Shown here piece after piece: positions 2,686 to 28,210 of a DNA stretch of 64,000 nucleotides (positions within the stretch are counted from its first letter, which is position 1; every line of letters starts with the position of its first letter). The DNA comes from Roseovarius sp. SCSIO 43702 (GTDB taxonomy: Bacteria; Pseudomonadota; Alphaproteobacteria; Rhodobacterales; Rhodobacteraceae): positions 332,501 to 396,500 of the forward strand of contig NZ_CP080623.1 in assembly GCF_019599045.1 (NCBI RefSeq). The letters are read 5' to 3'. Below the pieces are notes generated by a model that was given only the letters and a program-made list of their open reading frames with translations, had not been told where the DNA came from and did not search any database. Both the position numbers and the translations under genes were made by a program.

Positions 2686-2710
2686 GGGGCATGGGCCGGG
2701 CGGCGCCCTC

Positions 2711-5939: not shown

Positions 5940-6458
5940 TTGGGGCGGTTGGAATATTCGGGCAAGCGCAAGCGCGGTCTATTGGCGGTCTTCGCCTTCG
6001 CGGCATCTGTAACGTGGCTGTCTTGTGCCGGTGCGCCGTCCACGGCGCAAATCCTGCAGGACTGGCGGGTCGATTGCGCATCCGGGGTCTGCAATGCCTC
6101 GCAGACCGTGGCCGCCGAGGATGGCACCTGGCTCGCGACGGTGCGCCTTTATGCGGGTGAGACCGCGCCGACCTCGGACGAGGTGCTGGGCGAGATCCTC
6201 GTGCCCTCGGGCGTTCACCTGGCATCGGGGTTGTATCTCGGCTTCGGCGAACGGATGATCGACGCGGCCTGGCAACGCTGCACCGCCGAGATGTGCCGGG
6301 CGGCGCTGGCGTTCGACGACGGCATGCTCGGCGCGTGGCGCAGGGGCGCGGCCTCGGAAGTGAGGTATCGTCCCGGTCCTGATGCGCCGGTGATCGCCTT
6401 CGACGTGAGCCTCATGGGGCTGACCGACGCGCTGGCGGCGCTGGAGGCGGGCCGATGA
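5940..6458 (+). CDS. IalB-like periplasmic protein, first in the TPS operon
   Basis: Protein of about 172 residues with an N-terminal signal segment (after a KRKR basic cluster, a hydrophobic run ending near APSTAQ). The mature part resembles the invasion-associated locus B family: an early WRVDCASGVC, then WQRCTAEMC about 75 residues later. The paired cysteines suggest two disulfides in the periplasm. No ATG is available, so a TTG at 5940 or 5949 must be used. The last codons overlap the TpsB start (ATGA at 6455). Tight coupling to tpsB and a paralogue just downstream suggest a role in handling TpsA or TpsB; that is inference. No function of IalB in two-partner secretion is known to me. Confidence 0.75.
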   Translation: MGRLEYSGKRKRGLLAVFAFAASVTWLSCAGAPSTAQILQDWRVDCASGVCNASQTVAAEDGTWLATVRLYAGETAPTSDEVLGEILVPSGVHLASGLYLGFGERMIDAAWQRCTAEMCRAALAFDDGMLGAWRRGAASEVRYRPGPDAPVIAFDVSLMGLTDALAALEAGR

Positions 6459-7950
6459 GATTTGTCCTCCTGGCACTCGCTTTGCTGCTCGGGCAGGGCG
6501 CCGTGGCCCAGACGTTCAGCGTGGACGAGATCGAGTTCAGCGAAAGCGCCTATCTCGAGGCGGAGGCGCTTGATGCGGTGGCGGCGCCCTACGAGGGCGT
6601 GCCGATCGATCTCGAGGCGCTGGACCGGCTTCTGGCCGAGGTCCAGGCGCTCTATGCCGAAGCCGGGATCATCACCGCCCGCCCGATCCTGCCGCCACAG
6701 GAGATCAGGGACGGCATCCTGCGGATCGAGCTGGTCGAGGCGCGGATCGGTGCGCTGAGATACGCGGTGCCGCATACCAAGCCGGAGTTCTTGCGCCGCA
6801 ACCTCACCCTGTCGCCGGGGAGCTGCCTGACTACGAGGCGATGGAGCGGGACCTGCGGATCTTCGAGGTCGCGCATGATTTCGTGCCGGAACTGGCATTC
6901 GAGCCGGGAACCGAGCCGGGCACCACGGATGTGACCGTCCGCAGCGAACCGATGAAGCGCTACGATCTGACGGCATCGCTTACCAATTTCGGCACCAAGT
7001 CCACCGGCGAGCTTCAGGCGAGCCTGTTCGGCCGCGTCAACAGCCTGACGGGCGTGCGCGACACGCTCTCGTTCCAGTTGCAGGCAAGCGAGGGCGCGGC
7101 ATCGGGCCAGGTGGGGTACTCGCGCCCGATGGGCCGTCCGGGTGGCCGGCTGGTGCTGTCGGCCGCCTATTCGCAGTCGGACGTCATCTCGGGCGCGTTC
7201 AGCACCCTCGATATCGTCTCGGACAGCCAGTCGGCGGGGATTGCCTATCGCTGGCCGGGCTACGTGCGGCCCAACTCGCACTGGATGTTCGAGACCGGGT
7301 TCACCTACGACGAGAACCAGTCGACGCTGGGCGGTCTGCCGCTTGCCGATGTCACCCTGACCGAGCTCCAGGCGCGGGCCGAACGGGTCTGGCGCGGCGA
7401 CCGGCAGGCGCTTCAGCTCTCGTTCGGGCTGCGGGTCGGCACGGCGGAGACGAACCAGGTGTCCCAGACCGAGGGCGACTACTGGCTGCTCGAGGCGGGG
7501 CTGGGGTGGAACCGGCTGATCGGCGAGAGCGCGCTGCTTTCGGTCCAGGCGCGTGCGCAGTTGGCCGAGAACCAGAACCTGCCCGTGGACCGCCTCTTCA
7601 CGGTGGGCGGGCCGACCTCGGTGCGGGGCTATCCCAACAACGTGCGGGCGGGCGACAGCGGGCTCGAGATGAAGATCCAGCTCGACCGTGCGCAGCCCTG
7701 GAACTGGGGCCGGCGCGTCAGCGTCACCCCGTTCGGCTTTGTCGATGCCGCGGTCGTGAAACCCTTTCGCCAGGGCGGCGGGTTCGATGCCGACCAGGAT
7801 CTGCTCGCTTCGGTGGGCGGCGGCGTGCGCGTGGGATTGGGAAAGAAGGTTGCGGCGCTGATTTTCGTCGGTGTGCCGCTGGTCGATACGCTCGGCTTCG
7901 ATGCGAGCGGCGAATATCGGGTCCATGCCGGGCTCGACTGGACATTTTGA
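6455..7950 (+). pseudogene. TpsB two-partner-secretion outer-membrane transporter, apparent frameshift in a G run
   Basis: ShlB/FhaC-type Omp85 protein that would export the neighbouring TpsA. The first 122 codons encode a signal peptide (MRFVLLALALLLGQGAVAQ) and a POTRA domain. At G4 (6817-6820) the homology moves to another frame. One extra G would give PGELPDYEAMERDLRIF and join the frame that runs to 7950. That part carries the rest of POTRA, then a 16-strand barrel with VGGPTSVRGYPNN, the conserved Omp85 VRGY motif, and ends in Phe (LDWTF). Repaired length is about 498 residues, slightly shorter than typical TpsB (550-580). The barrel shows no other damage, so a sequencing error or very recent mutation is likeliest. 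A separately translated 6841 product would lack signal and POTRA1. Confidence 0.85.
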
Positions 7951-7969
7951 GAAACGAAGGATGAACGAC

Positions 7970-8545
7970 ATGATGAAGAAACTGTTCCTGGCCGCGGCCC
8001 TGGCTGCCACCACGCCTTTTGCCGCGATGGCGCAGGATACGACCGAGGGCGTCGCCGAGAGCGAGCTCGAGGCCGCGCGGGCGGTGGCCAACAACTCGGT
8101 CTTCGGCGGCTGGATCGTCAATTGCGAGGCCCTGACGGTGCGCGACACGAGCTGCCGCCTGATCCAGCAACTGACGCTGGCCGAGAGCGGCGCGCTGGTC
8201 GCGCGGTTCATCGTGCTGCCGGTCGAGGATGGTGCGGCGGTCATGCTGGCGCAGGTTCCGATGGGTGTCTTCCTGCCGGGCGGCGCGGTGTTCCGCGTCG
8301 AGGGGGCGGATGACGACGCGCAGAAGGAGATGATCTGGCAGCGGTGCCTGGGCGAGCTTTGCGAGGCGGCGATCCGCCTCGAGGGCGAGGATATCGACGC
8401 GCTGCGCGAGGCCGACGCGATGCTCTTCGGATACCGGATCGAGGTCGATGGCGACCCGGTCGTCGTGCGGGTCGACACCAGCGAATTCGGCGCCGCGATA
8501 GATGCCATCCGCGAGGACGCCGAAACCGAGCCGGCGGCGGAATAA
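7970..8545 (+). CDS. IalB-like periplasmic protein, second in the TPS operon
   Basis: Protein of about 191 residues with a clear Sec signal peptide, MKKLFLAAALAATTPFAAMAQ. The mature part shows the IalB pattern: GGWIVNCEALTVRDTSC, later IWQRCLGELCEAAIRLEG, so four cysteines occur in two pairs as in the 5940 gene, though overall identity looks low. ATGs at 7961, 7970 and 7973 are possible; GAAGG at 7956-7960 best fits 7970. It lies 19 bp after tpsB and 87 bp before tpsA in the same direction. A periplasmic helper for the giant exoprotein is a plausible inferred role. Confidence 0.8.
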   Translation: MMKKLFLAAALAATTPFAAMAQDTTEGVAESELEAARAVANNSVFGGWIVNCEALTVRDTSCRLIQQLTLAESGALVARFIVLPVEDGAAVMLAQVPMGVFLPGGAVFRVEGADDDAQKEMIWQRCLGELCEAAIRLEGEDIDALREADAMLFGYRIEVDGDPVVVRVDTSEFGAAIDAIREDAETEPAAE

Positions 8546-8554
8546 GAGACGACA

Positions 8555-8584
8555 CTGCCCCCGGCCGACCGGCCGGGGGTGCAG
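8555..8584 (+). terminator. Strong intercistronic hairpin upstream of tpsA
   Basis: CCCCCGGCC (8558-8566) and GGCCGGGGG (8571-8579) form a perfect 9-bp stem with a GACC tetraloop. CTG/CAG at the ends could extend it past a small bulge. There is no T run after it, so it does not look like a complete intrinsic terminator. An attenuator or RNA-stability element setting tpsA levels relative to tpsB is possible. Confidence 0.5.
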
Positions 8585-8632
8585 GAACTCGCGGCCGGGC
8601 GGGCCGGATACGCGCGACGGGGAAGACCTGAG

Positions 8633-11600
8633 ATGACGAACGCAACGGGACGTGGACAGATGACTTTCAAGAGCCTGACAGCCTGGGGGCGCAACTGCGT
8701 CGCGGCCCTCTCGTCCTTCGCGATCGCGGTCACACAAGTCGCCCCGGCCTGGGCGCAGGCCGCCCCCTCGGGAATCACGGTCGCCCAGTCGGGCGGCGCG
8801 CCGATCACCGCGACGACGATCACGCCGGGCGCGTCAGGCACGTTCGACATCACCACGGGAACGATCGTGGGCGGCATCGCGCGCAACGCCTTCGACCAGT
8901 TCAACGTCGGCGCCGCCGAGACGGTGAACCTGATCCAGCCGGGTGGCAGCCGGGCACTGGTCAACACGGTGACCGGCGGCACGTCGACCATCGCCGGGCA
9001 GCTCAACATGCTCAAGAACGGGCAGGCGGCGGGGTCGAACGTGTTCCTCGTCAACCCCGATGGCGTGATCGTGGGCAAGGGGGGCGCCATCACCGCCGGC
9101 GCGCTGACCATGTCGACCGCCACCGCGGGCGAAACCTCGGCCATCGCCGCGGGTGACAGCGCCGCGATCCAGCGCCTCTTCGACCGGCAGGAGGCGCTTT
9201 CGGGTGCCGGGATCGAGGTCTATGGCCGCATCGACGCCGAGCGGCTCGATCTGCGTGCCGGCGGCCGGATGCTTCTGCAGGGGCGCATCAGCGTGGAGGG
9301 CGGTGAGGGCGCGGCGCCCGCGATCGGCGGCGCGGTCAATACCGAGGGGATGAAGCAGGCCAACGGCGTGTCGGTCGAGAACGGCGTGATCCGCCTTTTT
9401 GCCGGTGGTGACATGACCATCGGCGGCGGCGCGGACACGGCCAACAGCGTGACGGCGAAGGCGGGCACCTCCGGCGGCGCGGTCCAGGCCGCGTCGGGCG
9501 GCAGCATGACGGTGAAGGGCGATGCCAGCATCGACGTCGCGGGCAGCACCGGGGATGGCGGCATGCTCCTGCTCTATACGCAGGGCTCGGCGGTGCTCGA
9601 GGACGGGCTGTCGCTCAAGGCGTCGTCGGTGGCGGGCGATGGCGGCATCGCGGCGCTCACGGCGGAAGGCGCGGCCGAACTGGGCGCGATCGCCGCGGAC
9701 CTGGGATCGGACGGCGGCACCGGCGGCGCGCTGCGGGTCGAGGCGGCGTCGCTGACCGTCGCCGGGGCGGGCAGCCTCGTGACGCGCGGCGGCGACCTGG
9801 CGCTTGTCGGCGAGAGCATCGCCGTCACGAACATGGATATCGACACCCGCCGCCGCACCGGCGCCGGAGCGGTTCTGTCGGATGCGGGCGACGTGATCCT
9901 GGTCGCGCCCGAGATCAGCATGACGAACGCATCCGTGAAGGCCGAGGGCGGCGCCGAAGCGGGCGGCATGATCGCGCTGCTGGCGCGCGACGTGGCGGCG
10001 GAACAGGGACCGCTGCAAACCGATACCGGCGCGAAGGCGGCGATCACCCTTGCCGACAGCGCGCTTCAGGCCGGCGCCATCGTGGTCAACGCGGTGGCCC
10101 TGGCGAGCACGGTGGACGACAAGGACAGCGCGGGCAGCGACACGGCCTCGGAGAGCATCCTCAACAACATGGACGGCGTGCTGACCGATACCGCCGACCT
10201 CGTGCAGAAGGTGGCGACCGGCGCGCTCGACGCGATCTCGTCGGTCGCGATGCTGCAACTGGCCGAGCTTTCGGCGGATGCCAGTGTCACGATCACCGAC
10301 TCGGTGCTGACCGCGGATGGCGACTGGAAGGGGCTCTCGCGCGGACCGGACGCGACGTGGAATGCCGGGGTCCTGGCGGATAACGGCATCCTCAGCCGCG
10401 ACGGCGCGGCGGAAGAGACGTGGACGCTGCTGGAGAGCGCGCCCGAGGGGCTGCGCCTGACCGGGGCGCTGCCGCTGGCGGTCTCGGCGGATAGCGGGGG
10501 CGTCATCGTCCAGTCGGACGCGCGCACGAATGTCGATATCGAGCCCGACGATTTCAACGCCGGCGCGACCGCGGCGCGCAGCGACGCAAGCTCGGTGATC
10601 CGTATCACGGACTCCGCGCTGACCGCGAAGGGCGACACGGACGTGTCCGTCGTCTCGACCGCCTTCGACCGGACGCGGATCAAGATGGGCACCAAGGATA
10701 CCCTGGCGGGGGCGCTGGGTGTCGTGCTGTCGCATCGCAACGTGACCAACCAGACCATCATCGACGGGGGCAGCATCAGCGGGCGCGATCTGCGCGTCGC
10801 GGCGCTGACCGGCAAGCATCACGAGATCGACAACCGCTCGAACGCCGGGATCGACGGTGCGTTCAGCGCCGCGATCACGGTGAACCTTGGACACAGCCTG
10901 ACCGAGGCGGCCCTTGGGGGCACGATCACGGCCAGCGGCAAGGTGGACCTCGATGCCGAGACGCTGTTCTTCGGCCGCACGGTCAAGACGAACGCGACGA
11001 TCGGCAAGGCGGACGATCCCAAGGAGCGCCAGATCAACGAGCGCCGCAAGGAAAGGATCAAGGGCTTCGCCGGCAAGATCCTCGGCACCGCCGAACGCGG
11101 CAAGAGCGAGGCGGGCGGCGAGGACAGCACCAACGGCGGGAAGGTCGGCTTCGGCATGGCCCTGACGATGGACCTGAGCCTCGAGCGGCAGGACACCTAC
11201 GCGACGCTGGGCGGGCGCTGGCATGACGGCGGCACGCTCGTGCAGCTTGCCGCGACGAACGTCGCCGCGACCGAGGTGGATGTCGACGCGGTGACGCGGT
11301 TCGCGCGGCCCGGCAACGGGTCCGGCGCCGTGACGGGGTTCCGTGGCGAGGGCGGCGGCACGCTCGCCCGCAGCACGCTGGGCGGCGTCGGCACGCTCGG
11401 GGCGGTGCAGGCCAAGATCCAGCAGCAGCGCGGCCTGACCAAGGAAGAGATCGTCTCGCAATACGGTCATGCCATGGTGATCACCGGCTCGTTCTCGAAC
11501 TTCGGCGGCCACACCGAGGCCGAGATCGGCGCCGCCACCGTGACCGCCGCACGCGCCAGCGTCGATGCGCGGACCGCGCTGCCTCTGCCGGGCAAGCCCG

Positions 11601-14600
11601 AGCAGATCCGCGCCGCGATCGAGACCTTCGCGGATGCCGTGACCGATTTCCGGAAATACGATCCTGCATCGCTGGAACTGCCGGAAACGCCGCAGCTTCC
11701 CGAACTCGACGGCTTCTTCAGCCTCGACGAGGGGCTCGTCACGAGCCGCGTGGAGACCTCCGCCATCGGCACGAGCGACACGGACAAGCCCCAGAGCTCG
11801 GCCATCGGGGTGACGGCGGCCTATGACGGCTACGATTTCGAGACCCGCGCGCGGATCGGCACGGGCGCCGTGCTGACGCTGAGCGAGACGGCCTCGGTCA
11901 ACGCGGTCGCCACCGGGGTCATCACCGGCTATGCCAACAAGCCCGGAGGCTCGAGCCTGAAGCCCGGCGGTGCCACGGCTGCGGTCGGCGGCACGCTGAG
12001 CGCGGTGCGCCTGCGCTCGATCACCGAGGCGGATATCGCGGCGGGCGCGCGGATCGTGGCAGGTGGCACGCCGGGCGCACCGGATGCGGCGGATGTCGCG
12101 GTGACGGCGCGGAACGGCATGGTGCTGGTGACGGGTGGCTGGGCCGGCGGTGCGGCCGCCAAGGCCTCGGTCAACGGTATGGCGATCCTCGGCGCCTTCG
12201 ACGTGGCGACACGCGCGCGGATCGGCGCGGGCGCGGATATCGTGGCCGATGCCGTCACCGTGGATGCCAAGGATGAGAGCGTCCTCGTGGGTGTCGCGGG
12301 CGCCCTGTCGGTCTCGGAGAATGTCGGCGTGGGCGTGGGCATGCAGATGTTCGTGGGCACCCGCGACACGCGCGCCTCGCTCGACGGCGCGACGGTGACG
12401 GCAACGCGCCTCGCCGTGAATGCCGAGACCGCCGGCGTGATGGTCTCGGCCGCCGCCGCCGGTGCCGTGGTGCGCCAGTCCACTCCCAAGTCGGGCGGCG
12501 GCAGCGCGCCGAGCACGCCCGCGCCGGGTGGCGGCGGTGACGACGAGGACGTGCTGATCCCGTCGTGGTTCTTCGACGAGGACGAGAACGCGGCGATCTC
12601 GGACCGGTCGCAGTTCGATACGGCGGAAGAGCCGCAGAACGTGGATGCGGACACCGGCCAGGCGACGGGGGGCAAGGGCTCGGCCAAGGCCAAGACGGGC
12701 TTTTCCATCGCGGGGGCCGCGGCGCTGAACATCCTGCTCGAGAACGCGACCGTGGCCGAGATCGGCGCGGGCTCCACGGTCGAGCTGACCGGCGCCCTCG
12801 ACGTGACGGCGAAGAACCGGACCATTCATGCCACCGTCGCGGGCGCGCCGTCGCTGGGCATCGGGTCCAAGAACAGCAACAACGCGCTGGCGGGTGCGCT
12901 TGCCGGGCTGGTCGATGGCACGCCGCTGGCGGGCCGCGATACCATGGCGCGGATCACCGGCGCCGTCGTCACGGCGGGCGACACGACGGTCGAGGCCGAG
13001 GACCTTTCCATCGCGGCGACGGTGGCGATCGGCGGTGCGGGCTCGACCCGCGGCACGGTTGTGATGGCGGGGTCCGTCGCCGGGCTCTGGGCCTGGGGCA
13101 GCACCCGCGCGGTGGTCGAGGACAGCGCCGTGAGCGTGGCCGCGCTGGACCTCGACGCCAAGGACGCGTCGATCAACGTGACGCTGGGCGGCGCGGCGGG
13201 CGCGAACCTGTCGAAGGAGGGCGCGCTCGGGGCCGGTCTCGGGGTTGCGATCAAACTCTTCAACCGCTCCGCCGAGGCGCGGCTCTCGACCGACGTGGCG
13301 GGCCGCATGACCGAGGCGGAGGCGATCACGGTGGATGCGCAGAGGCTCGGCGTCCTCATCGGGGTCGCCACGTCCGTCGGCGTGGGCAAGACCGGCCTTT
13401 CGGGCAGCGCCGTGCTGAACACGCGGATCGGCGACACGCGCGCGATCATCGGCGGCGGCACCGAGCGGCTGGGTCTCAAGGCGGACAGCGTCAGGGTCAA
13501 GGCGAACGAGGATTCGCACCTGTGGTCCCTCGCCGGTGCCATCGGCGGCGGTATCGCGGCGGCGGTCGGCGGCGCGGCCACGGCGAACGTGATCGTGACG
13601 GATACCGATGCCGATCTGCGCGGCGTCGACCTGGCCGCGCGGGATGGCGGCGACCTGGGCGAGGTGGTGCTGCTGAGCGATGCGAAGACCACCATCGGGA
13701 CGCTGGCGGTGGCGGGCCAGGCCGCCAAGGGCAAGGGCGTGGGCATGGGCGTGACGCTCAACAACATCACGGCGCAGGTGCGGGCCCGCGCCGATGGCAG
13801 CACGGTTTCGCAGGCGGCGCGGTTCGACGCGCAGGCGCGCAACACGCGCAACATCTGGTCGGGCGCGGGCGGCGTGGCCGGTGCGGGCGGCGGTGCGGCG
13901 GGCATGGCGCTCGCGGTCAACCTGCTGACGGTCAACCAGACGCTTGTGGACCTCGACAACGCCGCGATCTCGACCCGCACGGGCGGGATCAGGGCCGAAG
14001 CCGTGGCCAATGGGCAGGTCGTGTCGGTCTCGGCCGCCCTCGGCATCTCGGGCGCCAAGGGCGCGGCGGGCGCGGTCACGCTCAACTCCTCGCTGGGCGA
14101 GACGAAGGTCACGGCGGACAGGGCATCGCTCGATTCGGCGGGCGACATGTCGCTGCTGGCCACGGATCATGCGCGGTTCAGCTCGGTCGCGGGCGGCGTG
14201 ACGGGCAGCGGCGCAGGCAGCGCGGGGGCCGGGATCTCGGGCAACCTGATGCTGAACAGGACCGAAGTCGTCGTCACCGATGCGACGTTGCGGCTGCGCG
14301 GCGGGGCGCTCAGGGCGCGCGCCGAGAGCAAGCCGGTCATAGATGCCGTGGCGGTCGGGTTCGCCGGCTCCGGGGGGGCGGGTCTCGGTGGCAGCATCAT
14401 CGTGGCCGATATCGGCAACATCACCTCGGCGCGCATCACCGGCACGGATATCGACGCGGGCACGTCCTCGGTGACGGTCGAGGCGGAATCGGCGGACCCG
14501 TCGGTCATCCGGCTGGATCCCAGCATGAATGTCGGCTTCGACGGCGATGGCCGCGCGCTCGGCAACATCACCGCGCTGGCGGGCGGTGCGTCGATCGCCG

Positions 14601-20600: not shown

Positions 20601-23600
20601 ATATCAGCTACGCGCTGTCGGACGATTACCGCTCGTCGGGCGATTTGCAGCAGCGCATCGACTATCTCGACGGCCTGATCAACAACCCGGCCCTGAGCAC
20701 GGGCGAGTCGGATGCCGCCAAGGTCGCCTGGCGCACCGAGAAGGCGCTGCTCGAGGCGCGCCGCGACGCGCAATCGGGCAGCTTCGGCATGATCGAGCTG
20801 GGGCCGGTGCGCGCCAGCAGCGGCAACATCGTGATGGATGCCGACTGGGTGCAGGGCGGCCCCACGGGCAAGCTGACGGCGCCGGGCAATGTCCTGATCG
20901 ACATCCTGTCGACTACCTCGGACGTGCTCAAGACCGGTGCGCTGACGATCCCGCCTGGCCGGGGCGGAGAAATCACGCTGCGCTCGGTGTCGGTGACGTC
21001 GGGCGACGATCTGCGCGCGCTTTCGGGCGGCCGGGGCGGAGACTACAGCCTCGCGCTGGAAACCAGCGCGACGGGTGATGCCCCGTTGATCAATGTCGCC
21101 ACCCAGCCCGCGAACGGCATCGGCGGCACCATCGTGATCGGCGGCGATGCCGACAACTTCTCGGGCGAGATCCTCGTCAACTCGGCCTATGGCGATATCG
21201 ACGTGCGCGGCGCCGTCGCCGCGCAGACCGTCAAGATCGAGGCGCCCAACGGCGACTTCATCCTCGGCTACGTGCCCGGCATCCGCTCGGTCTCGGGCGA
21301 TCCCGACGCGCAATATGACGGGCGGTTCAAATCCTACGAAGACGCCTATCGCGATTACGTGCGTGCCTTCGGGACTATCGCAAGGCGCGATCCCGGCGCA
21401 TCGCTCGTCGTCAACAACGGCGGATTCCGTGCCGGCAAGAACGTCTACATCACCGCCGACACGCTCAACATCAACGGCGATATCATTGCCGGCAAGGCGA
21501 GCTATACGGTCGATATTTCCGCCTCGGCGCAGTCCACCATCGACGCGATCGCGGCGCGTGGCGGCGTCGGCTCGGAGCTGGTCCATGCCGCGTCGGGCAA
21601 CGGGCCCACGCTGACCGGTGTAAGCAGCGATGCCGATATCTTCTTCAACCACGGCACAGGCCGACTGGAAGTCGCCGACATGTCGGGGCAGGGCGGCCGG
21701 ATCGAGATCGTGGGCAAGATCATCTCGACCGGTGGCGGGCGCATCGAGTCCCTGTCCGGGTGGGGCGCCATCGACGTGCGCAGCGCGGTGCGGCAGGACC
21801 TCGTGCTGGGCAAGATCGACCTCGGCGCCAAGCGCCTGGATGGCGTGATCCGCATCACCGACACGTCGCGCGCGCTGCTGGACAGCACCACGGGCGCGCA
21901 GCTCAAGGATCGCGACGGCATCGGGCGATTCCTCACGACCGAGTTCCGGCGCGAGGGCGATCAGCTCAAGACCTATACCAACCGCAGCCAGACGGCGGTC
22001 TACGACCCCGAGAGCCGCGTCACCCGCGAGCTGGCCACCGTCGAAGAGGGGAGCGTCACGGGCCGCACCACCAGTTTCGCGCCCAAGGCGAACCAGGATT
22101 ACATCGTGCGCCGCGCCGAGGATGTGACCCATGTCGTCACGACGCGCCGCTCGGTCGAGACCATCGTGTTCAACGTCTTCAAGACGAAGGACAAGACCCG
22201 CACGACCCAGATCGCGACCAGCACCCGGTCCGTGGACCTGGGACAAGGGCCGTTCGTCGGCGCGTCGCTTGGGGGCGCGGATTACAACTATGCCTTCAGC
22301 GGACAGCGCGTCTCGCAGACCGGCCCCAGCACGGTCGAGACGAACTACGAAGACAACCGATGGGGCATCTCTCCCTTCGGCGTCGACCTGAAGGTCGGCT
22401 GGCGCCACTGGACCTATGACACCACCACCAAGACCCGCCATCTCTACGAGCATCGCCTGAAGGCGGACCATGCCATCGACATCGGCTTCGGCGGCAATGA
22501 CGCCGCGCGGCTCAATGTCGTCGCCAATGGCAGCGTCATCTTCGGCGGCAGCGTGCGCAACATCGCGGGCGAGACGAGCGCGCAATCGATCGACGGCTCG
22601 GTGCTGACCGGCGGTCGCGGCGTGGTGCTGAACACCGCCGCGCTCAGCCTGCGGGCCGAAAAGGGGCGGATCGGATCGCTCGACGGTGCATTCCGGCTGG
22701 TGCAGGCGAATGACGCGGCGGTTTCGGCCGTTGCCAAGGACGGCATCGCGCTGCGCGAGATGAACGGCGCGCTGCGCGTTGCGCAGGCCGAGGCCACCGG
22801 CTCGGGCGCGTCCGTGAGCCTCATGGCGCGGGGCGATTTGCTCAAGTCGGGGGCGGGCATCGTCAAGGCCCACAATGTCGACCTGACCTCCGAGGCGGGC
22901 GCCATCGGTGGCGCCGGCGCGCCTTTCGCCATCGACACCGGCGCCGAGGGACGGCTGATCGCGCAGGCGCGCGGCGATATCGCCATCGCCGAGCTGACCG
23001 GCGACCTGGGCGTGGGCACGGTGCGCTCGTCGATCGGCTCGGTCGCGCTGAGCGCGCCGGGCGCGATCCTCGACCGCAACGACGACGCGCTGCGCGATCT
23101 GCGCACCGCCGAGGAGCTGCGCAAGCTCTGGACCGACGAGCTGGGCCTCAACGGGGCCGGGCTGGCCGACCGCGAGCAGGAGCAGACCGTTGCGCTGCAG
23201 ATCGACATCCGCGCGGAATACGACGCTTACTGGCGCGCCCGCGGCGCCACGGCCGAGCGCCGCGAGATCGCCGGCGCCGATCCCGATGGCGCGTATTGGG
23301 ACCGCTGGGAGATGACGGGCGGCGACGCGCAGACCTACACGCTGGACGCGGACCGCCGCGCCGCGATCGAGGCGGCGGGCGGTGACGTGGACGCCTACGT
23401 GGCCAAGCGCCGCGCGCTCTATGCCGAGTGGAACGCGCAGAACGCCTATGACAACGGCTATACCTATCAGCCGGTCGCCGCCGACCTGGCGCCGCGGCGC
23501 ACCGGCATGGAGTGGACGCAGGCCCAGCTCGAGCGGTCGATCCGCGCGGGCCTCGTGCGCGAGACCGCCGACACCCGCACCCGGATCGAGGCGGCCAACG

Positions 23601-26600
23601 TCATGGCCGCGGGCGATATCACGCTCAGCGCCGGCGCGGGCCTCGGGGCCTTGCTCGAGCCGTATGTGATCGACCCGGGCGCAGGGACGCTGACGGGCCG
23701 CGATCTCGAGGTGCTGTCGGGCGCCGTGCGCGAGGATATCACCCGCGACGCAGAGGGCCGCTACATCGTGCGGCAGGCCGAGGATTTCAATTTCGGCTTC
23801 AGCGATATCGACCCCGCGACCGGCGCGGCCAAGGGGCGCCTGACCGTGACTGTCGGCGGGCAGGAGGCGATCTTTGCCGGCGCCGAAACCGCGGCCAATC
23901 TTGGCCTCGTCAACGGCCGGGGCGATGTGCGCCTCAAGATCGACGGCGCCATGACCGATGCCGGGCTGGGCGACGTGGCGATCACCGGGCGCCTGCTGGT
24001 GCTCGAGGCGGGCGATGCCGGCACCATCGGCACCGAGGACGCGCCGCTGCGCGTGGGTATGCTCGAAGGCGGCGCGCTCGACGCGCGTGCGGGCGGGGAT
24101 GTGAACATCGCGGCCCCGGCGCTCGATGCCGCAGCACTGGCGCGGCTGGGCCTTGGCGGGCAGGTGAACGGCGATATCGGGCTCTCCGAGGTGTTCTCGC
24201 GCGGGACCGTGCGGATCACGGCGGATGGCGCGCTTTTCGACGCCGCGCCCACCGGCGCGCCGCGCATCGTCGCGCGCGCGGCCGCGTTGAACGCCGCCTC
24301 GATCGGGACCGCTTCGGCGCCGCTGGGGATCAAGCTCGATCCGCTGGGCGGTGGCGGCCTGCGCCTCAGGACCGCGCAGAACGCCCATGTCGCGGGCAGT
24401 GGCGATCTGCGGCTCGACAGTGCCCGGATCGGCGGCTCGGGCGCGCTCGGCAGCAGTGGATTGCTGACCCTTTGGGGCAATGACACGCTGTCCTTCGGGG
24501 ATAACCTGGCGCTGACCGCGACGGGCGGCATCGACAGCACCAATGCCACCGGCACCGATATCAGCGGCGGCGCCCTGACGCTGACGCTGGGCGGCACGGC
24601 GGGCGCGGGCAAGCCCCTCGCCACCGCAATCGATCAGCTGACCCTCACCGCGATCGGCACGGCCGGCCTCGATCTGAGCGAGCGCGACGATCTGGCGGTG
24701 ACGACCGCGACCCTTGGCAGCGGCGCGCTGACGCTGGCCGCGGGCGGGCACCTGACCGCCGGCACGATCACCAGCCTCGGCACCGTCACGCTGGCCAGCC
24801 TGGAGGACATCGTTTCGGGCGACGTCACCGCGCAGCGCGTGACGGCCACCGCCAGCGGCGCGATCGGCCGCGCCTCGGCGCTGCGGTTGACCGCGCCCGA
24901 GCTGTCGCTGCGCGCGGGTGGCACGGTGGATGCGCGCATCCTGCGGGCCGCCACGCTGACCCGCTTCGAAGCCGGGCAGGGCAACAGCACCCTGGACGCC
25001 TCGGGCCACGACCTGATGGCGCAGGCTGGATCCGCCTTCGTCAGCGAGGGCAATCTGCTGGTCGAGGCCGATGATCTGACGCTGAACACCTCGGCCCATG
25101 TGGCCGAAGGGTTCGCCATCAGCGCCGCGAATGTCGTCTGGCAGGATATCACCGCCGGGACGCTCGACCTCGATGCGCTGACCCTGCGCCAGACGGGCGG
25201 CAAGACCGCCGATATCGAGGGGCGGGCGACGCTCACCCTGACCGGCGCCGCCACCTTCGAGGAGGGGGCCCGCCTCGAGGCCCGGGTCGCGACGCTGGAC
25301 ACGGGCAATCTCGGCCTCGGCGCGACATCCGCGCTCGAGACCACCGAGGACCTGACAATCAATGTCGCCGGCACGCTGGTGCAAGGCGCGGGCGCGACGG
25401 TCGAGGGGTCGGTCATCGACGCCACGGCGGGCGGCGCGGTCTCGATCGGCGACGGGTCCAGATGGGCAGCCCGGACCGGCGCGCTCGGCCTGACCGCGGG
25501 CGGCAGCCTGACACGCGGCGACAGGACCGCGCTGACCGCGGGGCAGGGCCTGACGCTGACCGCCGCTTCCATGACGGCCGGCACCGAGAGCCGGACCACC
25601 GCAGGCGGAGCGCTCGAGGTCGAGACGCTGAGCGGCGGCATGGACTGGGGCGCCGATGGCACACTGTCGGGGGCGATGATCCTCGCCAAGTCCGATGCCG
25701 ATATCAGCCTCGGCGCGCGCAATACCTGGACCTCGGCGGGGATGCTCGATCTTCAGGCCGGTGGCGATGTGACCGTCGGCGCGGCGGCGCACCTCGTGGC
25801 CGGGGATTCACTCGGCTTCGGCGTGAGCGGATCGCTCAGCCTGGGCGCGGGTGCCTCCTTTGCCGGGGCCGGTATCCATGGTGACGTTCGGGGCGCGATC
25901 TCGCTCGGCGATGACGCTAGCTGGACCGCCCGCACGAACGATGTGAACGTACACAGCGCCGGCCTTTTGATGCGCGGTGACAAGACCTCGATCTCTGCCG
26001 GGGACGACATCAGGCTTTGGGCCGCCGCGATGGTGACGGGCAACCGGAGCCGGACGGTGGCGCAGGACAATGTCTGGCTCGTTGCGGATAGGGCGGAGAT
26101 GAGCTGGGGCGCGGATGCCGAGGTCTCGGGCGCGACGATCGGCGCCTTCGCCCGCGGCGACATGTTCCTCGGGGACCGCGCGACATGGACCGCCACGAGG
26201 GGTGAGTTCCATCTCGACGCCGGGGGCCACCTGACCCGCGGGGACAAGACCGCGCTCAGCGCAGCGCAGAGAATGGTTCTTGCCGGTGCGACCATGGTGA
26301 CGGGCCGCGAGAGCCAGACCATTGCGGGCGGCGCGATGACGCTGGATGCGATGACGGGCGGCCTGAGCTGGGGCGCGGATGGCACCCTCTCGGGACAGTC
26401 CGTCACTGCCACGGCGGCGGGTGACGTGGATCTCGGCGCGCGCACCGTCTGGACATCGGCGAGCACGCTGGACCTGACGGCGACGGGTGAGGTGAGTTTG
26501 GGCGAGGCGGCGGTCCTGACGGCGGGCACGTCCCTGACCCTCGCGGCGGGCGGATCGCTGGCGCAGGGCGCCGGGAGCGTGATCCGCGCGGCGGGTCCCG

Positions 26601-28210
26601 ATGTGGACGTGTCGGCCGGCGGCGACTTTACGCAGGCGGCCGGGGCGCTGCTCGATGGCGGCGCGGCGCGGGTCAGCATCGGTGTGAAGGGCGACATGGT
26701 GCTGCGCCTCGTGCAGACATCGAACGCCACGGATGCGGCGCTGAACCTCACCGTGAGTGGCACGCTGTCACGCCAGGCCGAAGGGCAGGCGGGCCTCGTC
26801 GCCGATGCCGATGGCGCGCTCACCGTGCTGCGCGCGGGGGCGGTGGCGCCGACCGGGCCGGTCGGCCTGGAGGTCGCGCTGGCGCGGCTCGATGCGATCG
26901 TCGCGGCCGGGTCGCTGCACCTGGCGGAGGCGAGCGGGCTCATCCTCGAGCGGGCCGAGACGGCGGGCGCCGTCCTCGACATCGCGGCGGCGGGCGACAT
27001 GACCGTGCGCAGGGCGAAGGCGGCGGGCGATATCGTGCTCACGTCGGGCGGCGACCTGATCTCGGATCTGGCGCAACTGGATGCGCGCGAGGTTCGGCTC
27101 TTTGCCTTTGGCGGCGCGCTGCGCGGCGAGACGACGGGCACGTTCCGGGCCGATCTCGCGCCCGGCGCGACGGCCTATCTGCTGGCGAATGGCGATCTGG
27201 ACTTCGCCGAGACGCAGGGCGATCTGCGGATGGGCTTTGCCCTCTCGGATACGGGCGACGTCACCCTCGCAGCCGAGACCGGCAGCATGGAGGTGGGCGT
27301 GCTGGGTGTGGGTGACACGCTGACCATGGTGGCGGCGGGCGACCTGGTGGTGAACGCCCTGGGCGGTGTCAGCGTCGATCTGGCCGACGAGACCCGGCTC
27401 AAGCTGATTGGCCCCGAGCGGTATGGCGTGCGGGATGCGGGTGCCGCGCGTGTCGCGCAGCTGACGGCGATGGCGCCGGGTGCCAACCTGCGCGCGGGCC
27501 TGCTGAACGTGCGCGAGCGTCTGACGCTCGAGGCCGACCGGATCGACGCCTTCGGGTATGACCCGACGGCGGCGGACGGGATCGACCTCACGATCCACGA
27601 CGCGCAAGGCGACATGGCCGAGGAGGTCATGGTGCGCATGATCGGCGACGGGCCCGACCTTTTCCTCGCGGATCCCTTTACGCCCATCCGTTCGCTGCTG
27701 GGCACCCGCGCGACCGGCGGCACGACCGGGGGCGAGACCCGGATCGCGCGGGGCCGCATCCAGGATGGCCGCGTGATCGCCAGCGGCCCGCGCCTCTCGC
27801 TGTCGGACGACGTGGCCGTGGGCAACGTGGCCTGGTTCGAGCAGCGGACGAGCAAGGTTCTGGTCACGCGGGATTACGCGGCGCTCTCGACGATCGCGGA
27901 CGCGCAGATCCTGGCCGGAGACATGGGGTTCGTCGCCTTCGATCTCGAGAACCTGCTCGAACTGCGGGTGCGCAACGGGCTTGTCCTGAACCGCAAGACC
28001 GGGGGTCTGGCCGTGAACGGCGGCCAGGGCTTCGGCTTCGATATCGGGGTCGAGACCGATCTGCTGGGACGGGACTTCGTCCGGGGCCTCGCTCCGGCGG
28101 GCGTGGTGCGCCCCGCCGCGCCGCGCTGGATCACGCCGCTCGATGCGCCGGGGACGACGTGGGTGCCCATGCGCGGCGTCTCGCTCGACGAGTCCGACAG
28201 GGCGCTCTGA
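8633..28210 (+). CDS. Giant TpsA filamentous-hemagglutinin/LktA-like exoprotein, about 6,525 residues
   Basis: Secreted adhesin-type protein exported by a TpsB partner. It has a long signal region (to VAPAWAQA, about residue 43) and a TPS domain (about 45-175) with VFLVNPDGVIVGKGGAI, a variant of the NPNG motif. Thousands of residues follow of glycine/alanine-rich beta-helix repeats alternating A-D-V/G-G-A strands, resembling Fusobacterium LktA-type tandem repeats. Non-repeat insertions interrupt it: acidic/proline linkers (about 1281-1353, 2058-2143 and 3062-3146), predicted helices (about 3987-4053 and 4810-4976) and a Trp/Tyr-rich segment (about 4430-4616). Residues 2871-2940 are duplicated exactly. 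I noticed no cysteine after the signal. The C-terminus (TWVPMRGVSLDESDRAL) shows no toxin domain I recognise. Starts at 8633 or 8660 are possible. Adhesion or biofilm is the likely role. Confidence 0.9.
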   Translation: MTNATGRGQMTFKSLTAWGRNCVAALSSFAIAVTQVAPAWAQAAPSGITVAQSGGAPITATTITPGASGTFDITTGTIVGGIARNAFDQFNVGAAETVNLIQPGGSRALVNTVTGGTSTIAGQLNMLKNGQAAGSNVFLVNPDGVIVGKGGAITAGALTMSTATAGETSAIAAGDSAAIQRLFDRQEALSGAGIEVYGRIDAERLDLRAGGRMLLQGRISVEGGEGAAPAIGGAVNTEGMKQANGVSVENGVIRLFAGGDMTIGGGADTANSVTAKAGTSGGAVQAASGGSMTVKGDASIDVAGSTGDGGMLLLYTQGSAVLEDGLSLKASSVAGDGGIAALTAEGAAELGAIAADLGSDGGTGGALRVEAASLTVAGAGSLVTRGGDLALVGESIAVTNMDIDTRRRTGAGAVLSDAGDVILVAPEISMTNASVKAEGGAEAGGMIALLARDVAAEQGPLQTDTGAKAAITLADSALQAGAIVVNAVALASTVDDKDSAGSDTASESILNNMDGVLTDTADLVQKVATGALDAISSVAMLQLAELSADASVTITDSVLTADGDWKGLSRGPDATWNAGVLADNGILSRDGAAEETWTLLESAPEGLRLTGALPLAVSADSGGVIVQSDARTNVDIEPDDFNAGATAARSDASSVIRITDSALTAKGDTDVSVVSTAFDRTRIKMGTKDTLAGALGVVLSHRNVTNQTIIDGGSISGRDLRVAALTGKHHEIDNRSNAGIDGAFSAAITVNLGHSLTEAALGGTITASGKVDLDAETLFFGRTVKTNATIGKADDPKERQINERRKERIKGFAGKILGTAERGKSEAGGEDSTNGGKVGFGMALTMDLSLERQDTYATLGGRWHDGGTLVQLAATNVAATEVDVDAVTRFARPGNGSGAVTGFRGEGGGTLARSTLGGVGTLGAVQAKIQQQRGLTKEEIVSQYGHAMVITGSFSNFGGHTEAEIGAATVTAARASVDARTALPLPGKPEQIRAAIETFADAVTDFRKYDPASLELPETPQLPELDGFFSLDEGLVTSRVETSAIGTSDTDKPQSSAIGVTAAYDGYDFETRARIGTGAVLTLSETASVNAVATGVITGYANKPGGSSLKPGGATAAVGGTLSAVRLRSITEADIAAGARIVAGGTPGAPDAADVAVTARNGMVLVTGGWAGGAAAKASVNGMAILGAFDVATRARIGAGADIVADAVTVDAKDESVLVGVAGALSVSENVGVGVGMQMFVGTRDTRASLDGATVTATRLAVNAETAGVMVSAAAAGAVVRQSTPKSGGGSAPSTPAPGGGGDDEDVLIPSWFFDEDENAAISDRSQFDTAEEPQNVDADTGQATGGKGSAKAKTGFSIAGAAALNILLENATVAEIGAGSTVELTGALDVTAKNRTIHATVAGAPSLGIGSKNSNNALAGALAGLVDGTPLAGRDTMARITGAVVTAGDTTVEAEDLSIAATVAIGGAGSTRGTVVMAGSVAGLWAWGSTRAVVEDSAVSVAALDLDAKDASINVTLGGAAGANLSKEGALGAGLGVAIKLFNRSAEARLSTDVAGRMTEAEAITVDAQRLGVLIGVATSVGVGKTGLSGSAVLNTRIGDTRAIIGGGTERLGLKADSVRVKANEDSHLWSLAGAIGGGIAAAVGGAATANVIVTDTDADLRGVDLAARDGGDLGEVVLLSDAKTTIGTLAVAGQAAKGKGVGMGVTLNNITAQVRARADGSTVSQAARFDAQARNTRNIWSGAGGVAGAGGGAAGMALAVNLLTVNQTLVDLDNAAISTRTGGIRAEAVANGQVVSVSAALGISGAKGAAGAVTLNSSLGETKVTADRASLDSAGDMSLLATDHARFSSVAGGVTGSGAGSAGAGISGNLMLNRTEVVVTDATLRLRGGALRARAESKPVIDAVAVGFAGSGGAGLGGSIIVADIGNITSARITGTDIDAGTSSVTVEAESADPSVIRLDPSMNVGFDGDGRALGNITALAGGASIAGASGVGIAATIVLMHNTVEARLEADDLVAGNVTVTATNDIGLNAAAVSGAGSGASGVAGSLVFTQIGVAGASEEDLIDEVAAQADADRPENARGDDISDASAQGRGDNVTLAEGVNPVEEGRELAVKGRDAAFDALERATDLDLDFVADAADSTQAVVKLGKSADIGNLTIRSDEKSVIRSAAGAAGIGSTNGVGLGITVNGIWGQSLAHLELADGVTLTAGDLEVKALQSGGIATFAGTGGVGAGSAGGAGSLVINSFGRRVASRIKGGVGVGIRAGDITVASNQSGNILGGALALAGASAGAGGASVMLNLMADEVDAEVKDVAIGEMGGTVDTPVYDTDKAAGAVRISARRELISAGTAASGAASGTGALAGGLAFNTDLSSVQSRLWGGSVVAESLDVAALNDIKLISVALGGAADGSFSAGLSVAANTAGADVLADIAGTRARTRHHLTVTADAITDASGNAVGGAASGVAAVAGTLTTNVLGNRVRAIVHGPAAVGPADLATAGTALIRADAINNISLAAGADEMPDYWDDFDIVDLLQSGLPTLNVSFAGAGWFSAGGTLAANITGNDVTASVRNRSSITALGHHTLTDPGDPEGKRQLRGAVIEAQANTVQSGANVTGGFSTAVALNGLVQANVIGDRAVVELGTGGQPSDAVRVNRAAEADLLAELGLVGAGADAHAEQDTVLRAQVRNDVLAFGGTVNFGLYAGLSGTAAGTVIGSKARVLTNLSDLGARRDIALESRIETQLVNVAVAAGTGAVGLGGALGVHVVGSDALTEVRGGVLTAREGDVEIDAAVSTKALTMAGTLGAGAAGVGMSLQATVFGSKAIARVAGADGGGTTPTIVTSQAGDVAVRADTNAYTLSGVAGVSGGVAAISLSANAAVMKAETRVDVGAGVTLDAGRDVKLAATEFVRLRGLAGSAAGGPASTGGSFNYTRFAGTTQVNVSLSANAAVMKAETRVDVGAGVTLDAGRDVKLAATEFVRLRGLAGSAAGGPASTGGSFNYTRFAGTTQVNVGERAVILAGRDVIASAKADRIVMGGTVVGAVSTGAISAAAVSLNVVDMGGTAASSDAGQALPQGPDGAAPANTTSQGDAVLGLRDDYLDDAQARLNRGAQAPGSATLAERGGAGAAVTRNDEERAKIDLTSAPEPDKLAVTIAADAMLAAGRDLTLSADTVARAELYSGNVTFAPMSFGGVAAGFGVGVTRTGALVSVGERAVLRADRNVTLQARTRGQKVGGEDGPMFDAVGVNASTGGISAAVGGVVVVDSSDSAVDIAAGAMIEGRSGGNAQSVTIEAERAGGMLIRSLNASGSGFISQGASFVLGLNSGTSRVNLAGAAGQQVGVKAARVTLDAADRSEVRIQGLAAALGAVANSINVAVGRNAGRTELTLTEARLRGGTITLANETTAVVTTQMLGVSVGVAGVGGSLSVSLNDATQRTRLSGVDIEATDVSVDTVASASATAESAAGAGAMLAANGSVSIAVLGYDAETSVSGRIAADNKLSIRTASVDAKADADARAFRGGILAGGATIAVAQQSTARVVTDLRSGNLTAREIRLQAINGSNMTADTISGSGGVVAGQAALTWLKADSETRLKLASGGVLDIDARTLGAGSSSQTVMNGHANSVNASVVGASGALLFTSSNSELETSVGAGARITADVIELSAVTGIKRPRHGSGWNVKAGSGGVVAGAAMKSDVEVHADTKLTVANGAVIRQTGSYDDPGAFRLIAGGNMDLTDRQKLDVGGLVATPGGVSSVVVHKNDATVSIGNATLSALGDLEILNGSNVDIRSEVDAKSYGLAGAGFAKTTASYNGSNRINIGGGAVLEAERDIVLGAGRTAAGSQRINIRAESRVFNNTAFAITVPTTADARAATTSRVTIDENAELRAVRDVELSAISGGRDVVGYGRAKDLSRAAIEAVGNFFGDLVGADEISLDIESGTSTDTHDDGIIVNGNVRAGTRNQVVLRFATLGGKTVLVDPDDPTKPADLTDPRWRDISYALSDDYRSSGDLQQRIDYLDGLINNPALSTGESDAAKVAWRTEKALLEARRDAQSGSFGMIELGPVRASSGNIVMDADWVQGGPTGKLTAPGNVLIDILSTTSDVLKTGALTIPPGRGGEITLRSVSVTSGDDLRALSGGRGGDYSLALETSATGDAPLINVATQPANGIGGTIVIGGDADNFSGEILVNSAYGDIDVRGAVAAQTVKIEAPNGDFILGYVPGIRSVSGDPDAQYDGRFKSYEDAYRDYVRAFGTIARRDPGASLVVNNGGFRAGKNVYITADTLNINGDIIAGKASYTVDISASAQSTIDAIAARGGVGSELVHAASGNGPTLTGVSSDADIFFNHGTGRLEVADMSGQGGRIEIVGKIISTGGGRIESLSGWGAIDVRSAVRQDLVLGKIDLGAKRLDGVIRITDTSRALLDSTTGAQLKDRDGIGRFLTTEFRREGDQLKTYTNRSQTAVYDPESRVTRELATVEEGSVTGRTTSFAPKANQDYIVRRAEDVTHVVTTRRSVETIVFNVFKTKDKTRTTQIATSTRSVDLGQGPFVGASLGGADYNYAFSGQRVSQTGPSTVETNYEDNRWGISPFGVDLKVGWRHWTYDTTTKTRHLYEHRLKADHAIDIGFGGNDAARLNVVANGSVIFGGSVRNIAGETSAQSIDGSVLTGGRGVVLNTAALSLRAEKGRIGSLDGAFRLVQANDAAVSAVAKDGIALREMNGALRVAQAEATGSGASVSLMARGDLLKSGAGIVKAHNVDLTSEAGAIGGAGAPFAIDTGAEGRLIAQARGDIAIAELTGDLGVGTVRSSIGSVALSAPGAILDRNDDALRDLRTAEELRKLWTDELGLNGAGLADREQEQTVALQIDIRAEYDAYWRARGATAERREIAGADPDGAYWDRWEMTGGDAQTYTLDADRRAAIEAAGGDVDAYVAKRRALYAEWNAQNAYDNGYTYQPVAADLAPRRTGMEWTQAQLERSIRAGLVRETADTRTRIEAANVMAAGDITLSAGAGLGALLEPYVIDPGAGTLTGRDLEVLSGAVREDITRDAEGRYIVRQAEDFNFGFSDIDPATGAAKGRLTVTVGGQEAIFAGAETAANLGLVNGRGDVRLKIDGAMTDAGLGDVAITGRLLVLEAGDAGTIGTEDAPLRVGMLEGGALDARAGGDVNIAAPALDAAALARLGLGGQVNGDIGLSEVFSRGTVRITADGALFDAAPTGAPRIVARAAALNAASIGTASAPLGIKLDPLGGGGLRLRTAQNAHVAGSGDLRLDSARIGGSGALGSSGLLTLWGNDTLSFGDNLALTATGGIDSTNATGTDISGGALTLTLGGTAGAGKPLATAIDQLTLTAIGTAGLDLSERDDLAVTTATLGSGALTLAAGGHLTAGTITSLGTVTLASLEDIVSGDVTAQRVTATASGAIGRASALRLTAPELSLRAGGTVDARILRAATLTRFEAGQGNSTLDASGHDLMAQAGSAFVSEGNLLVEADDLTLNTSAHVAEGFAISAANVVWQDITAGTLDLDALTLRQTGGKTADIEGRATLTLTGAATFEEGARLEARVATLDTGNLGLGATSALETTEDLTINVAGTLVQGAGATVEGSVIDATAGGAVSIGDGSRWAARTGALGLTAGGSLTRGDRTALTAGQGLTLTAASMTAGTESRTTAGGALEVETLSGGMDWGADGTLSGAMILAKSDADISLGARNTWTSAGMLDLQAGGDVTVGAAAHLVAGDSLGFGVSGSLSLGAGASFAGAGIHGDVRGAISLGDDASWTARTNDVNVHSAGLLMRGDKTSISAGDDIRLWAAAMVTGNRSRTVAQDNVWLVADRAEMSWGADAEVSGATIGAFARGDMFLGDRATWTATRGEFHLDAGGHLTRGDKTALSAAQRMVLAGATMVTGRESQTIAGGAMTLDAMTGGLSWGADGTLSGQSVTATAAGDVDLGARTVWTSASTLDLTATGEVSLGEAAVLTAGTSLTLAAGGSLAQGAGSVIRAAGPDVDVSAGGDFTQAAGALLDGGAARVSIGVKGDMVLRLVQTSNATDAALNLTVSGTLSRQAEGQAGLVADADGALTVLRAGAVAPTGPVGLEVALARLDAIVAAGSLHLAEASGLILERAETAGAVLDIAAAGDMTVRRAKAAGDIVLTSGGDLISDLAQLDAREVRLFAFGGALRGETTGTFRADLAPGATAYLLANGDLDFAETQGDLRMGFALSDTGDVTLAAETGSMEVGVLGVGDTLTMVAAGDLVVNALGGVSVDLADETRLKLIGPERYGVRDAGAARVAQLTAMAPGANLRAGLLNVRERLTLEADRIDAFGYDPTAADGIDLTIHDAQGDMAEEVMVRMIGDGPDLFLADPFTPIRSLLGTRATGGTTGGETRIARGRIQDGRVIASGPRLSLSDDVAVGNVAWFEQRTSKVLVTRDYAALSTIADAQILAGDMGFVAFDLENLLELRVRNGLVLNRKTGGLAVNGGQGFGFDIGVETDLLGRDFVRGLAPAGVVRPAAPRWITPLDAPGTTWVPMRGVSLDESDRAL
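17243..17662 (+). repeat. Exact tandem duplication, 2 x 210 bp, inside tpsA
   Basis: Copies 17243-17452 and 17453-17662 read identically base for base. The unit is exactly 70 codons, begins on a codon boundary (SLSANAAVMK...) and keeps the frame. Other repeats in the gene are diverged, so this copy is either very recent or an assembly artefact. Confidence 0.95.
25450..26540 (+). repeat. Degenerate repeat array near the TpsA C-terminus
   Basis: Three diverged units each contain a W-A-R-T block, then RGDKTALSA-like, then SWGADGTLSG-like motifs. RGD(K/R)T lies near 25514, 25975 and 26238, and the WGAD motif near 25640, 26100 and 26365. Units two and three are about 263 bp apart (about 88 residues); the first carries an additional block. 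This repeat class differs from the Gly/Ala-rich ones in the first half of the protein. Confidence 0.7.

What the first reader, a model, noticed from the sequence alone, without database searches (positions are those of the whole stretch)
5940..28210. Four-gene two-partner secretion cassette with two IalB-like proteins bracketing TpsB
Seen: IalB-like, tpsB, IalB-like and tpsA run in one direction, with an ATGA overlap between the first two and small gaps after. Known: standard TPS systems need only TpsB and TpsA; IalB proteins are periplasmic or surface proteins linked to invasion in Bartonella and are widespread with unknown function in Rhodobacterales. Inference: the two four-cysteine proteins may be periplasmic helpers or cargo partners dedicated to an extremely large TpsA, which must stay unfolded in transit.
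Basis: partly seen in the sequence, partly recalled or inferred. Interest (0 to 1): 0.75.

Follow-up and report, generated by a model that had tools for sequence, protein, structure and literature searches.

The report
Two-partner secretion operon with paired IalB proteins
A marine bacterium carries a secretion operon in which two small, probably periplasmic proteins of the IalB family sit beside the transporter and its giant exported protein; the same partnership recurs in many related bacteria, which gives this poorly understood, virulence-named family a testable role in exporting surface proteins.

Summary
The order ialB1-tpsB-ialB2-tpsA is real and conserved. Both small proteins pass Pfam's IalB cut-off and fold like solved Bartonella IalB (3DTD). 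Of 36 loci found with ialB2 in GTDB genomes, 27 have tpsA next, 26 tpsB before, and 21 of the 24 with enough sequence have ialB1 before tpsB. Stop/start overlap couples ialB1 to tpsB; a hairpin often precedes tpsA. In another family a rearranged cassette keeps an ialB2-type gene with tpsA and an ialB1-like gene (weaker placement) with tpsB. IalB also sits beside divergent TPS systems: 10 of 31 tpsB places in 149 family genomes (0.2 expected) and 10 of 147 rows from other alphaproteobacteria (1.1 expected). Best reading: IalBs are periplasmic partners of TPS export; the precise step is inferred. My searches found no paper on IalB with TPS; IalB beside trimeric autotransporters is published.

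The parts
5940..6458 (+). ialB1: IalB-family protein with four conserved cysteines and a signal peptide read by eye (172 aa from TTG 5940; second possible TTG 5949)
   Evidence: Pfam IalB 57.4 bits; four invariant cysteines in 9 aligned homologues; AF2 model matches 3DTD, Foldseek E 4.3e-8; orthologue upstream of tpsB in 21 of 24 tpsB-ialB2-tpsA loci with enough 5' sequence
6455..6931 (+). tpsB, first frame: POTRA domain; homology ends near 6823, after which the frame no longer matches
   Evidence: POTRA_2 57.6 bits; aligned to relatives up to residue 126 of L047
6814..6841 (+). place where tpsB changes frame in this record
   Evidence: not mended; mutation or sequencing error not decided
6817..7950 (+). 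tpsB, second frame: ShlB/FhaC-type barrel
   Evidence: ShlB 81.6 bits; 46-49% identity to four intact relatives, from residue 124 of L047 on
7961..8545 (+). ialB2: IalB-family protein with four conserved cysteines and a signal peptide read by eye (194 aa)
8558..8579 (+). G+C-rich hairpin (9-bp perfect arms, 4-base loop) between ialB2 and tpsA, no T run
   Evidence: folding z below -2 at this junction in 14 of 27 loci against 3 of 134 control windows (the window itself z -1.9)
8633..28210 (+). tpsA: giant TPS-domain protein, FxxPxG (LktA-family) type; 6543 aa if counted from GTG 8579; one cysteine in all, at residue 40, in the signal region
   Evidence: Pfam TPS 45.8 bits, NCBIfam NF012204 78.5 bits; cysteine count
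8783..9544 (+). TPS secretion domain of tpsA
   Evidence: Pfam PF05860 stretch 60-313 of window:8606-13600

Best explanation
This is a two-partner secretion (type Vb) operon, probably of a Roseovarius-group bacterium, that carries two extra IalB-family proteins. Shown: gene content and order, the IalB fold, conservation, and recurrence of IalB beside several separate TPS lineages. Inferred: both IalBs go by Sec to the periplasm, are held rigid by disulphides, and act as export partners. IalB1, translationally coupled to TpsB, would work at the TpsB POTRA domain (assembly or gating). IalB2, which stays with TpsA in rearranged loci, would hold or hand over the unfolded, nearly cysteine-free TpsA chain or its TPS domain. 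The hairpin before tpsA would set many copies of the small proteins against few of the giant. My odds: functional membership of the TPS system 0.85; a periplasmic export step rather than cargo or later surface role 0.5; this division of labour 0.35.
For: ialB2 followed by tpsA in 27 of 36 loci and the whole four-gene order in 21; stop/start overlap of ialB1 and tpsB, exact ATGA in 14 of 22, other overlaps in the remaining 8 by reading the printed letters; 10 of 31 ShlB places with an IalB within 5 kb in the family, 0.235 expected, P about 1e-13; 10 of 147 printed rows in other alphaproteobacteria, 1.14 expected on a 2-Mb genome for all, P 3.6e-7; at least 3 and by parsimony 5 gains or losses of the link on a 67-row TpsB tree. 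Pairing kept after rearrangement: L113 (another family) has ialB-tpsB divergent from ialB-tpsA, scoring 58 v 27 bits for the ialB1 profile and 162 v 58 for the ialB2 profile respectively, the second nested in ialB2 on the tree; L102 has an ialB2-type gene before a tpsA, with no tpsB beside it. Two IalBs also in L109 (tpsB-ialB-ialB) and L119 (tpsB-tpsA-ialB-ialB).
Against: No experiment; localisation and binding are not tested and signal peptides were read by eye. 9 of 36 ialB2-type loci lack tpsA and tpsB in the stretch held, and 7 of their 9 genomes have no ShlB match, so ialB2 relatives can persist without TPS. Most TPS loci lack IalB within 5 kb (21 of 31 in the family, 137 of 147 rows outside), so IalB is not needed for TPS in general. 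ialB1 is missing upstream of tpsB in L042, L048 and L062 although the sequence is held. ialB1 as one group has weak support (53/81), and the ialB1-like gene of L113 sits on a long branch (3.91) at an open fork. The chance expectation assumes even placement of genes; no second outer-membrane family was run as a control. The window's own tpsB is broken, so this copy may not work at all.
Confidence: 0.5

Rival explanations
1. The IalBs are co-exported or surface partners: they bind the displayed TpsA (cap, cross-linker or ligand-binding subunit) and take part in adhesion rather than in export.
For: IalB of Bartonella is described in passages I saw as an invasion factor (PMC8859334, PMC7688925); linkage data fit cargo partners equally well; the ialB2 type stays with tpsA in L102 and L113.
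Against: ialB1 is coupled to tpsB rather than tpsA, which a pure surface partner would not need; Brucella IalB was predicted periplasmic or inner-membrane (PMC7688925, passage).
Confidence: 0.25
2. IalBs are general envelope stress or quality-control proteins that bind unfolded outer-membrane cargo; TPS loci recruited copies as a local supply, without a specific contact to TpsB or TpsA.
For: All 26 TPS-bearing family genomes searched carry at least two IalB genes, most of them away from TPS; ialB2 relatives persist in genomes without ShlB matches.
Against: ialB1 and ialB2 hold their own positions and largely separate places on the tree, and the pairing is kept after rearrangement (L113); distance matrices of the four genes correlate (r 0.73-0.94, 0 of 2000 permutations as high for each pair), though shared ancestry alone can give this.
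Confidence: 0.2
3. The neighbourhood is passive: IalB genes hitchhike beside TPS genes inside mobile or variable islands, with no functional link.
For: The cassette is patchy: 1 of 35 same-genus genomes has the cassette-type tpsB.
Against: Overlapping stop and start codons, several distinct arrangements in several families, and far more cases than expected.
Confidence: 0.05

Closest known systems
Two-partner secretion systems with extra genes (hmw1ABC, hxuABC, cdiBCAI, bcpAIOB; review PMC5422565, section 9 and passages)
   Same: tpsB and tpsA in one operon with added genes, some shown to be needed for a working product; BcpO is in some species a predicted periplasmic lipoprotein needed for BcpA function
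   Different: Those extras are glycosyltransferases, a TonB-dependent receptor, acyltransferase-like, immunity or lipoprotein/cytoplasmic proteins; none in the text I saw is IalB, and here there are two related proteins, one tied to each partner
ialB beside trimeric autotransporter genes badA (Bartonella henselae) and batA (Brucella) (PMC8859334, PMC7688925, passages)
   Same: An IalB-family gene next to a type V secreted adhesin; possible operon
   Different: Type Vc, one IalB; the second paper judges an operon not the most likely explanation. In my class sample 0 of 28 YadA-anchor places had an IalB within 12 kb (compared by eye)
SadB and TpgA, partners of the trimeric autotransporters SadA and AtaA (PMC8151025, passages)
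   Same: Small envelope proteins encoded with a type V adhesin and needed for its normal surface display: the role proposed here
   Different: SadB is a trimeric inner-membrane lipoprotein and TpgA binds peptidoglycan; type Vc, not Vb; no direct sequence comparison was made here

Membership tests
Two-partner secretion (type Vb) | TpsA with N-terminal TPS domain | tested here: met
   PF05860 45.8 bits, cut-off 33.5
Two-partner secretion (type Vb) | TpsB with POTRA and ShlB-type barrel | tested here: met
   Both domains present as two pieces, 57.6 and 81.6 bits
Two-partner secretion (type Vb) | tpsB intact as one frame | tested here: not met
   Halves in two frames in this record; intact in relatives such as L047 and L061
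Two-partner secretion (type Vb) | TpsA is exported | not testable with these tools
   needs the bench
IalB family (PF06776) | profile score over the curated cut-off | tested here: met
   57.4 and 61.3 bits v 22.1
IalB family (PF06776) | fold of the solved Bartonella henselae IalB (3DTD) | tested here: met
IalB family (PF06776) | role in host-cell invasion (Bartonella) | not testable with these tools
   no reason to expect it in this organism
LktA-type filamentous adhesins (NCBIfam NF012204) | FxxPxG N-terminal domain over cut-off | tested here: met
   78.5 bits v 60; a family name only, no activity tested
SadB / TpgA type helpers | sequence membership | not tested
   Pfam gave IalB and no other family over cut-off; SadB and TpgA themselves were not compared

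The most novel reading that the evidence does not exclude
IalB proteins are a general class of periplasmic partners for type V secretion in Alphaproteobacteria, serving TPS systems (often as a pair, one member per partner) and trimeric autotransporters in Brucella and Bartonella; the classical invasion phenotype of IalB would then be partly an effect on the display of large adhesins.
Probability: 0.25. Interest if true: 0.8.

Novelty: new variant of a known kind. Interest (0 to 1): 0.6.

Why it matters
IalB is a widespread alphaproteobacterial family named after a virulence locus, and in the papers I saw its biochemical role is open; two-partner secretion is usually taken to need only two proteins. 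A recurrent link between them, with IalB types tied to TpsB and to TpsA, turns 'what does IalB do' into a simple knockout and binding question in harmless marine strains and points to a possible missing periplasmic step in type V export.

Tried and rejected

Literature: no paper of the held library has IalB with 'two-partner secretion' or 'invasion associated locus B' with 'filamentous hemagglutinin'. In the listings I saw titles and the starts of abstracts, none on IalB with TPS. I read passages of six papers (PMC5959193, PMC8859334, PMC2702493, PMC5422565, PMC8151025, PMC7688925) and one whole section (PMC5422565, section 9).

Row counts and dropped rows: one search reported 80 stretches matching a pattern, which may be a cap, 37 confirmed, 36 distinct loci. 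One search used 147 rows copied from the printed table, from 103 genomes; left out were the rows of G000 and G055 (counted in the family), a second piece of one gene in G393, and all rows that the tool did not print. G413 gives two rows for one IalB. Before the IalB tree L070, 8 core IalBs whose frame held a stop, and then 7 of 96 rows without a domain hit or too short were dropped; two rows labelled core (L016, L025) are the same genes as the TPS-linked rows of L073 and L074. In the TpsB tree L038, L070 and L099 are absent as short or cut pieces, and L077, L079, L081 and L092 as duplicates; L114 was labelled as IalB-linked. L071-L119 candidates for tpsA were not found or not tested for L072, L106, L107 and L109.

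Full report
WHAT IS THERE. The window is 64 kb of a 3.61-Mb single-contig genome. On the + strand lie ialB1 (5940-6458), tpsB (6455-7950, in two frames), ialB2 (7961-8545) and tpsA (to 28210). Profiles confirm each: IalB 57.4 and 61.3 bits (cut-off 22.1), POTRA_2 57.6, ShlB 81.6, TPS 45.8, and NCBIfam's FxxPxG 'LktA-family filamentous adhesin' domain 78.5. Upstream, same strand, are a VOC-family protein and a flavodoxin-like protein with a small DoxX-like protein between (name read by eye; sub-threshold HvfX match); downstream, on the other strand, is an MFS-type transporter (my reading, no profile run). Of 35 same-genus genomes searched, one (G560) has a closely related tpsB with the whole cassette; a second (G550) has a distant tpsB without IalB. 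G560's contig length equals that of the Roseovarius litoreus DSM 28249 contig, so the window most likely belongs to that genus (inference).

THE BREAK. tpsB is not one frame here. The first frame matches four intact relatives to residue 126 of L047 and the second from residue 124 on, so almost no homologous residues are missing. Whether this is a mutation or a sequencing error cannot be told from one record. Jannaschia helgolandensis (L043) also shows tpsB in two pieces, with an in-frame stop between the halves. Intact copies exist in other relatives.

CONSERVATION OF THE CASSETTE. A scan of GTDB species genomes with the ialB2 alignment gave 36 distinct loci (the 80 candidate stretches may be a cap), all Rhodobacterales by title or genus name (genus placement partly recalled). 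Local profiles: 27 of 36 have tpsA directly after ialB2; 26 of these have tpsB directly before it (the 27th, L070, is cut by the contig end); 21 have ialB1 before tpsB. Of the six without ialB1, L038, L054 and L070 lack 5' sequence; L042, L048 and L062 hold it and show no IalB there even at a lax threshold. ialB1 and tpsB share an exact ATGA in 14 of 22 loci, the window included, and the other 8 show GTGA, TTGA, TAATG or TGATG at the same place. Distances of the four proteins correlate over 20 complete loci (r 0.73-0.94), as expected for a unit, or for shared descent alone. The 50 bases after ialB2 fold with z below -2 in 14 of 27 loci, against 3 of 134 windows inside upstream sequence; the letters differ between loci. 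The window's hairpin has 9-bp perfect arms but z -1.9.

ORPHANS. Nine of the 36 loci have the ialB2-type gene without tpsA or tpsB in the stretch held (L046, L053, L059, L063-L067, L069). Seven of their nine genomes have no ShlB match; L053's and L067's have one elsewhere. In L067's genome (Monaibacterium marinum) that other locus reads tpsA-tpsB-ialB (L117; the long frame before tpsB is open at the 5' end and was not profiled as tpsA), so ialB2 there may only be unlinked. Five orphans (L046, L059, L063, L064, L066) lie within about 600 bases of a VOC gene 58-62% identical to the one upstream of the window's cassette, which hints at a shared old site and loss of the rest; not tested further. 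These five group beside the cassette ialB2s on the tree (90/73).

BEYOND THE CASSETTE. Of 149 family genomes (each another genus) 26 have 31 ShlB places; 10 of 31 have an IalB within 5 kb (0.235 expected): five cassettes and five others: ialB-tpsB (L071, L072), ialB divergent from tpsA-tpsB (L073, L074), tpsB-ialB-tpsA (L080). In the class sample 111 of 385 genomes have ShlB; IalB was sought in all 109 not already counted (67, 42); of the 147 printed ShlB rows used, 9 have an IalB within 2 kb and 10 within 5 kb (1.14 expected, taking 2 Mb for every genome), from family groups f26, f42, f91 and f117. Two more, L119 (f116) and L114 (f16), have tpsA between. TPS domains were found in the putative TpsAs of L071, L073, L074, L080, L105, L108, L110-L114 and L119, all that were tested among IalB-linked loci outside the cassette apart from L102 (33.3 bits, just under its cut-off of 33.5). 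On a tree of 67 TpsBs the no-IalB group needs 5 changes, at least 3 forced by well-supported forks.

TWO IALBS, TWO PARTNERS. ialB1s form one side of a branch (weak, 53/81) and ialB2s sit in another group (98/92). In G369, of another family, tpsB and an ialB run one way and an ialB and tpsA the other (L113). The one by tpsB scores 58 against 27 bits for the ialB1 profile, the one by tpsA 162 against 58 for the ialB2 profile; the second nests inside ialB2 on the tree, the first has a very long branch at an open fork. L102 has an ialB2-type gene right before a tpsA of the FxxPxG type (NCBIfam 113.8 bits) and a BCCT transporter, not tpsB, on the other side. L109 and L119 also have two IalBs.

SIZE. 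Cassette TpsAs run to 5928, 5677, 6759 and 5955 residues stop to stop, but 2805 in L040 and 1519 in L038. Outside the strict cassette, complete frames with IalB are 797-2829 and without IalB 1091-3025 (9 v 9, Mann-Whitney P 0.79). So IalB is not tied to size, although the window's own cassette type does often carry giants.

HOW IT MAY WORK. Signal peptides (by eye), conserved cysteines and the Brucella prediction quoted in PMC7688925 point to the periplasm (inference). A nearly cysteine-free chain of several thousand residues must cross it unfolded (established for TPS; DegP as a possible holding chaperone for FHA in PMC5422565, passage). The ialB2 type tracking tpsA and ialB1 tracking tpsB suggest one partner for the substrate and one for the transporter. 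This division is inferred, not shown.

WHAT IS KNOWN. The TPS review's section on extra proteins (PMC5422565) names glycosyltransferases, a receptor, proteases and CDI extras, not IalB. Passages of PMC8859334 and PMC7688925 report ialB next to badA and batA; the second judges an operon not the most likely explanation. My own class sample gave no IalB beside YadA-anchor genes (0 of 28 places). I found no paper on IalB with TPS in searches.

VERDICT. A conserved TPS variant with paired IalB proteins, not described in what I could search; functional link strong, mechanism open; this particular copy has a broken tpsB in the record.

Noticed in passing
17243-17452 and 17453-17662: Exact 210-base tandem duplication inside tpsA (70 residues); a recent slip or an assembly artefact.
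   Followed up: partly
8834-25792, - strand: A 5652-codon open frame lies antisense to tpsA; probably a by-product of the biased, G+C-rich coding sequence.
   Followed up: no
33218-33817, - strand: Small predicted protein built of near-identical repeats around QEREDLFAELS.
   Followed up: no
L043:8285-9820: tpsB of Jannaschia helgolandensis also in two pieces, here by an in-frame stop between POTRA and barrel.
   Followed up: partly
L046, L059, L063, L064, L066: Lone ialB2-type genes lie near a VOC gene like the one at window 3641-4657, in genomes without a ShlB match: possible relics of a lost cassette.
   Followed up: partly
L074:1913-13569: Two TPS-domain proteins (2415 and 842 aa) bracket one tpsB, with a divergent ialB beyond the smaller one.
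   Followed up: no
4669-5100: DoxX-like protein with a sub-threshold match (37.9 bits, cut-off 80) to the HvfX copper-RiPP maturation family.
   Followed up: no
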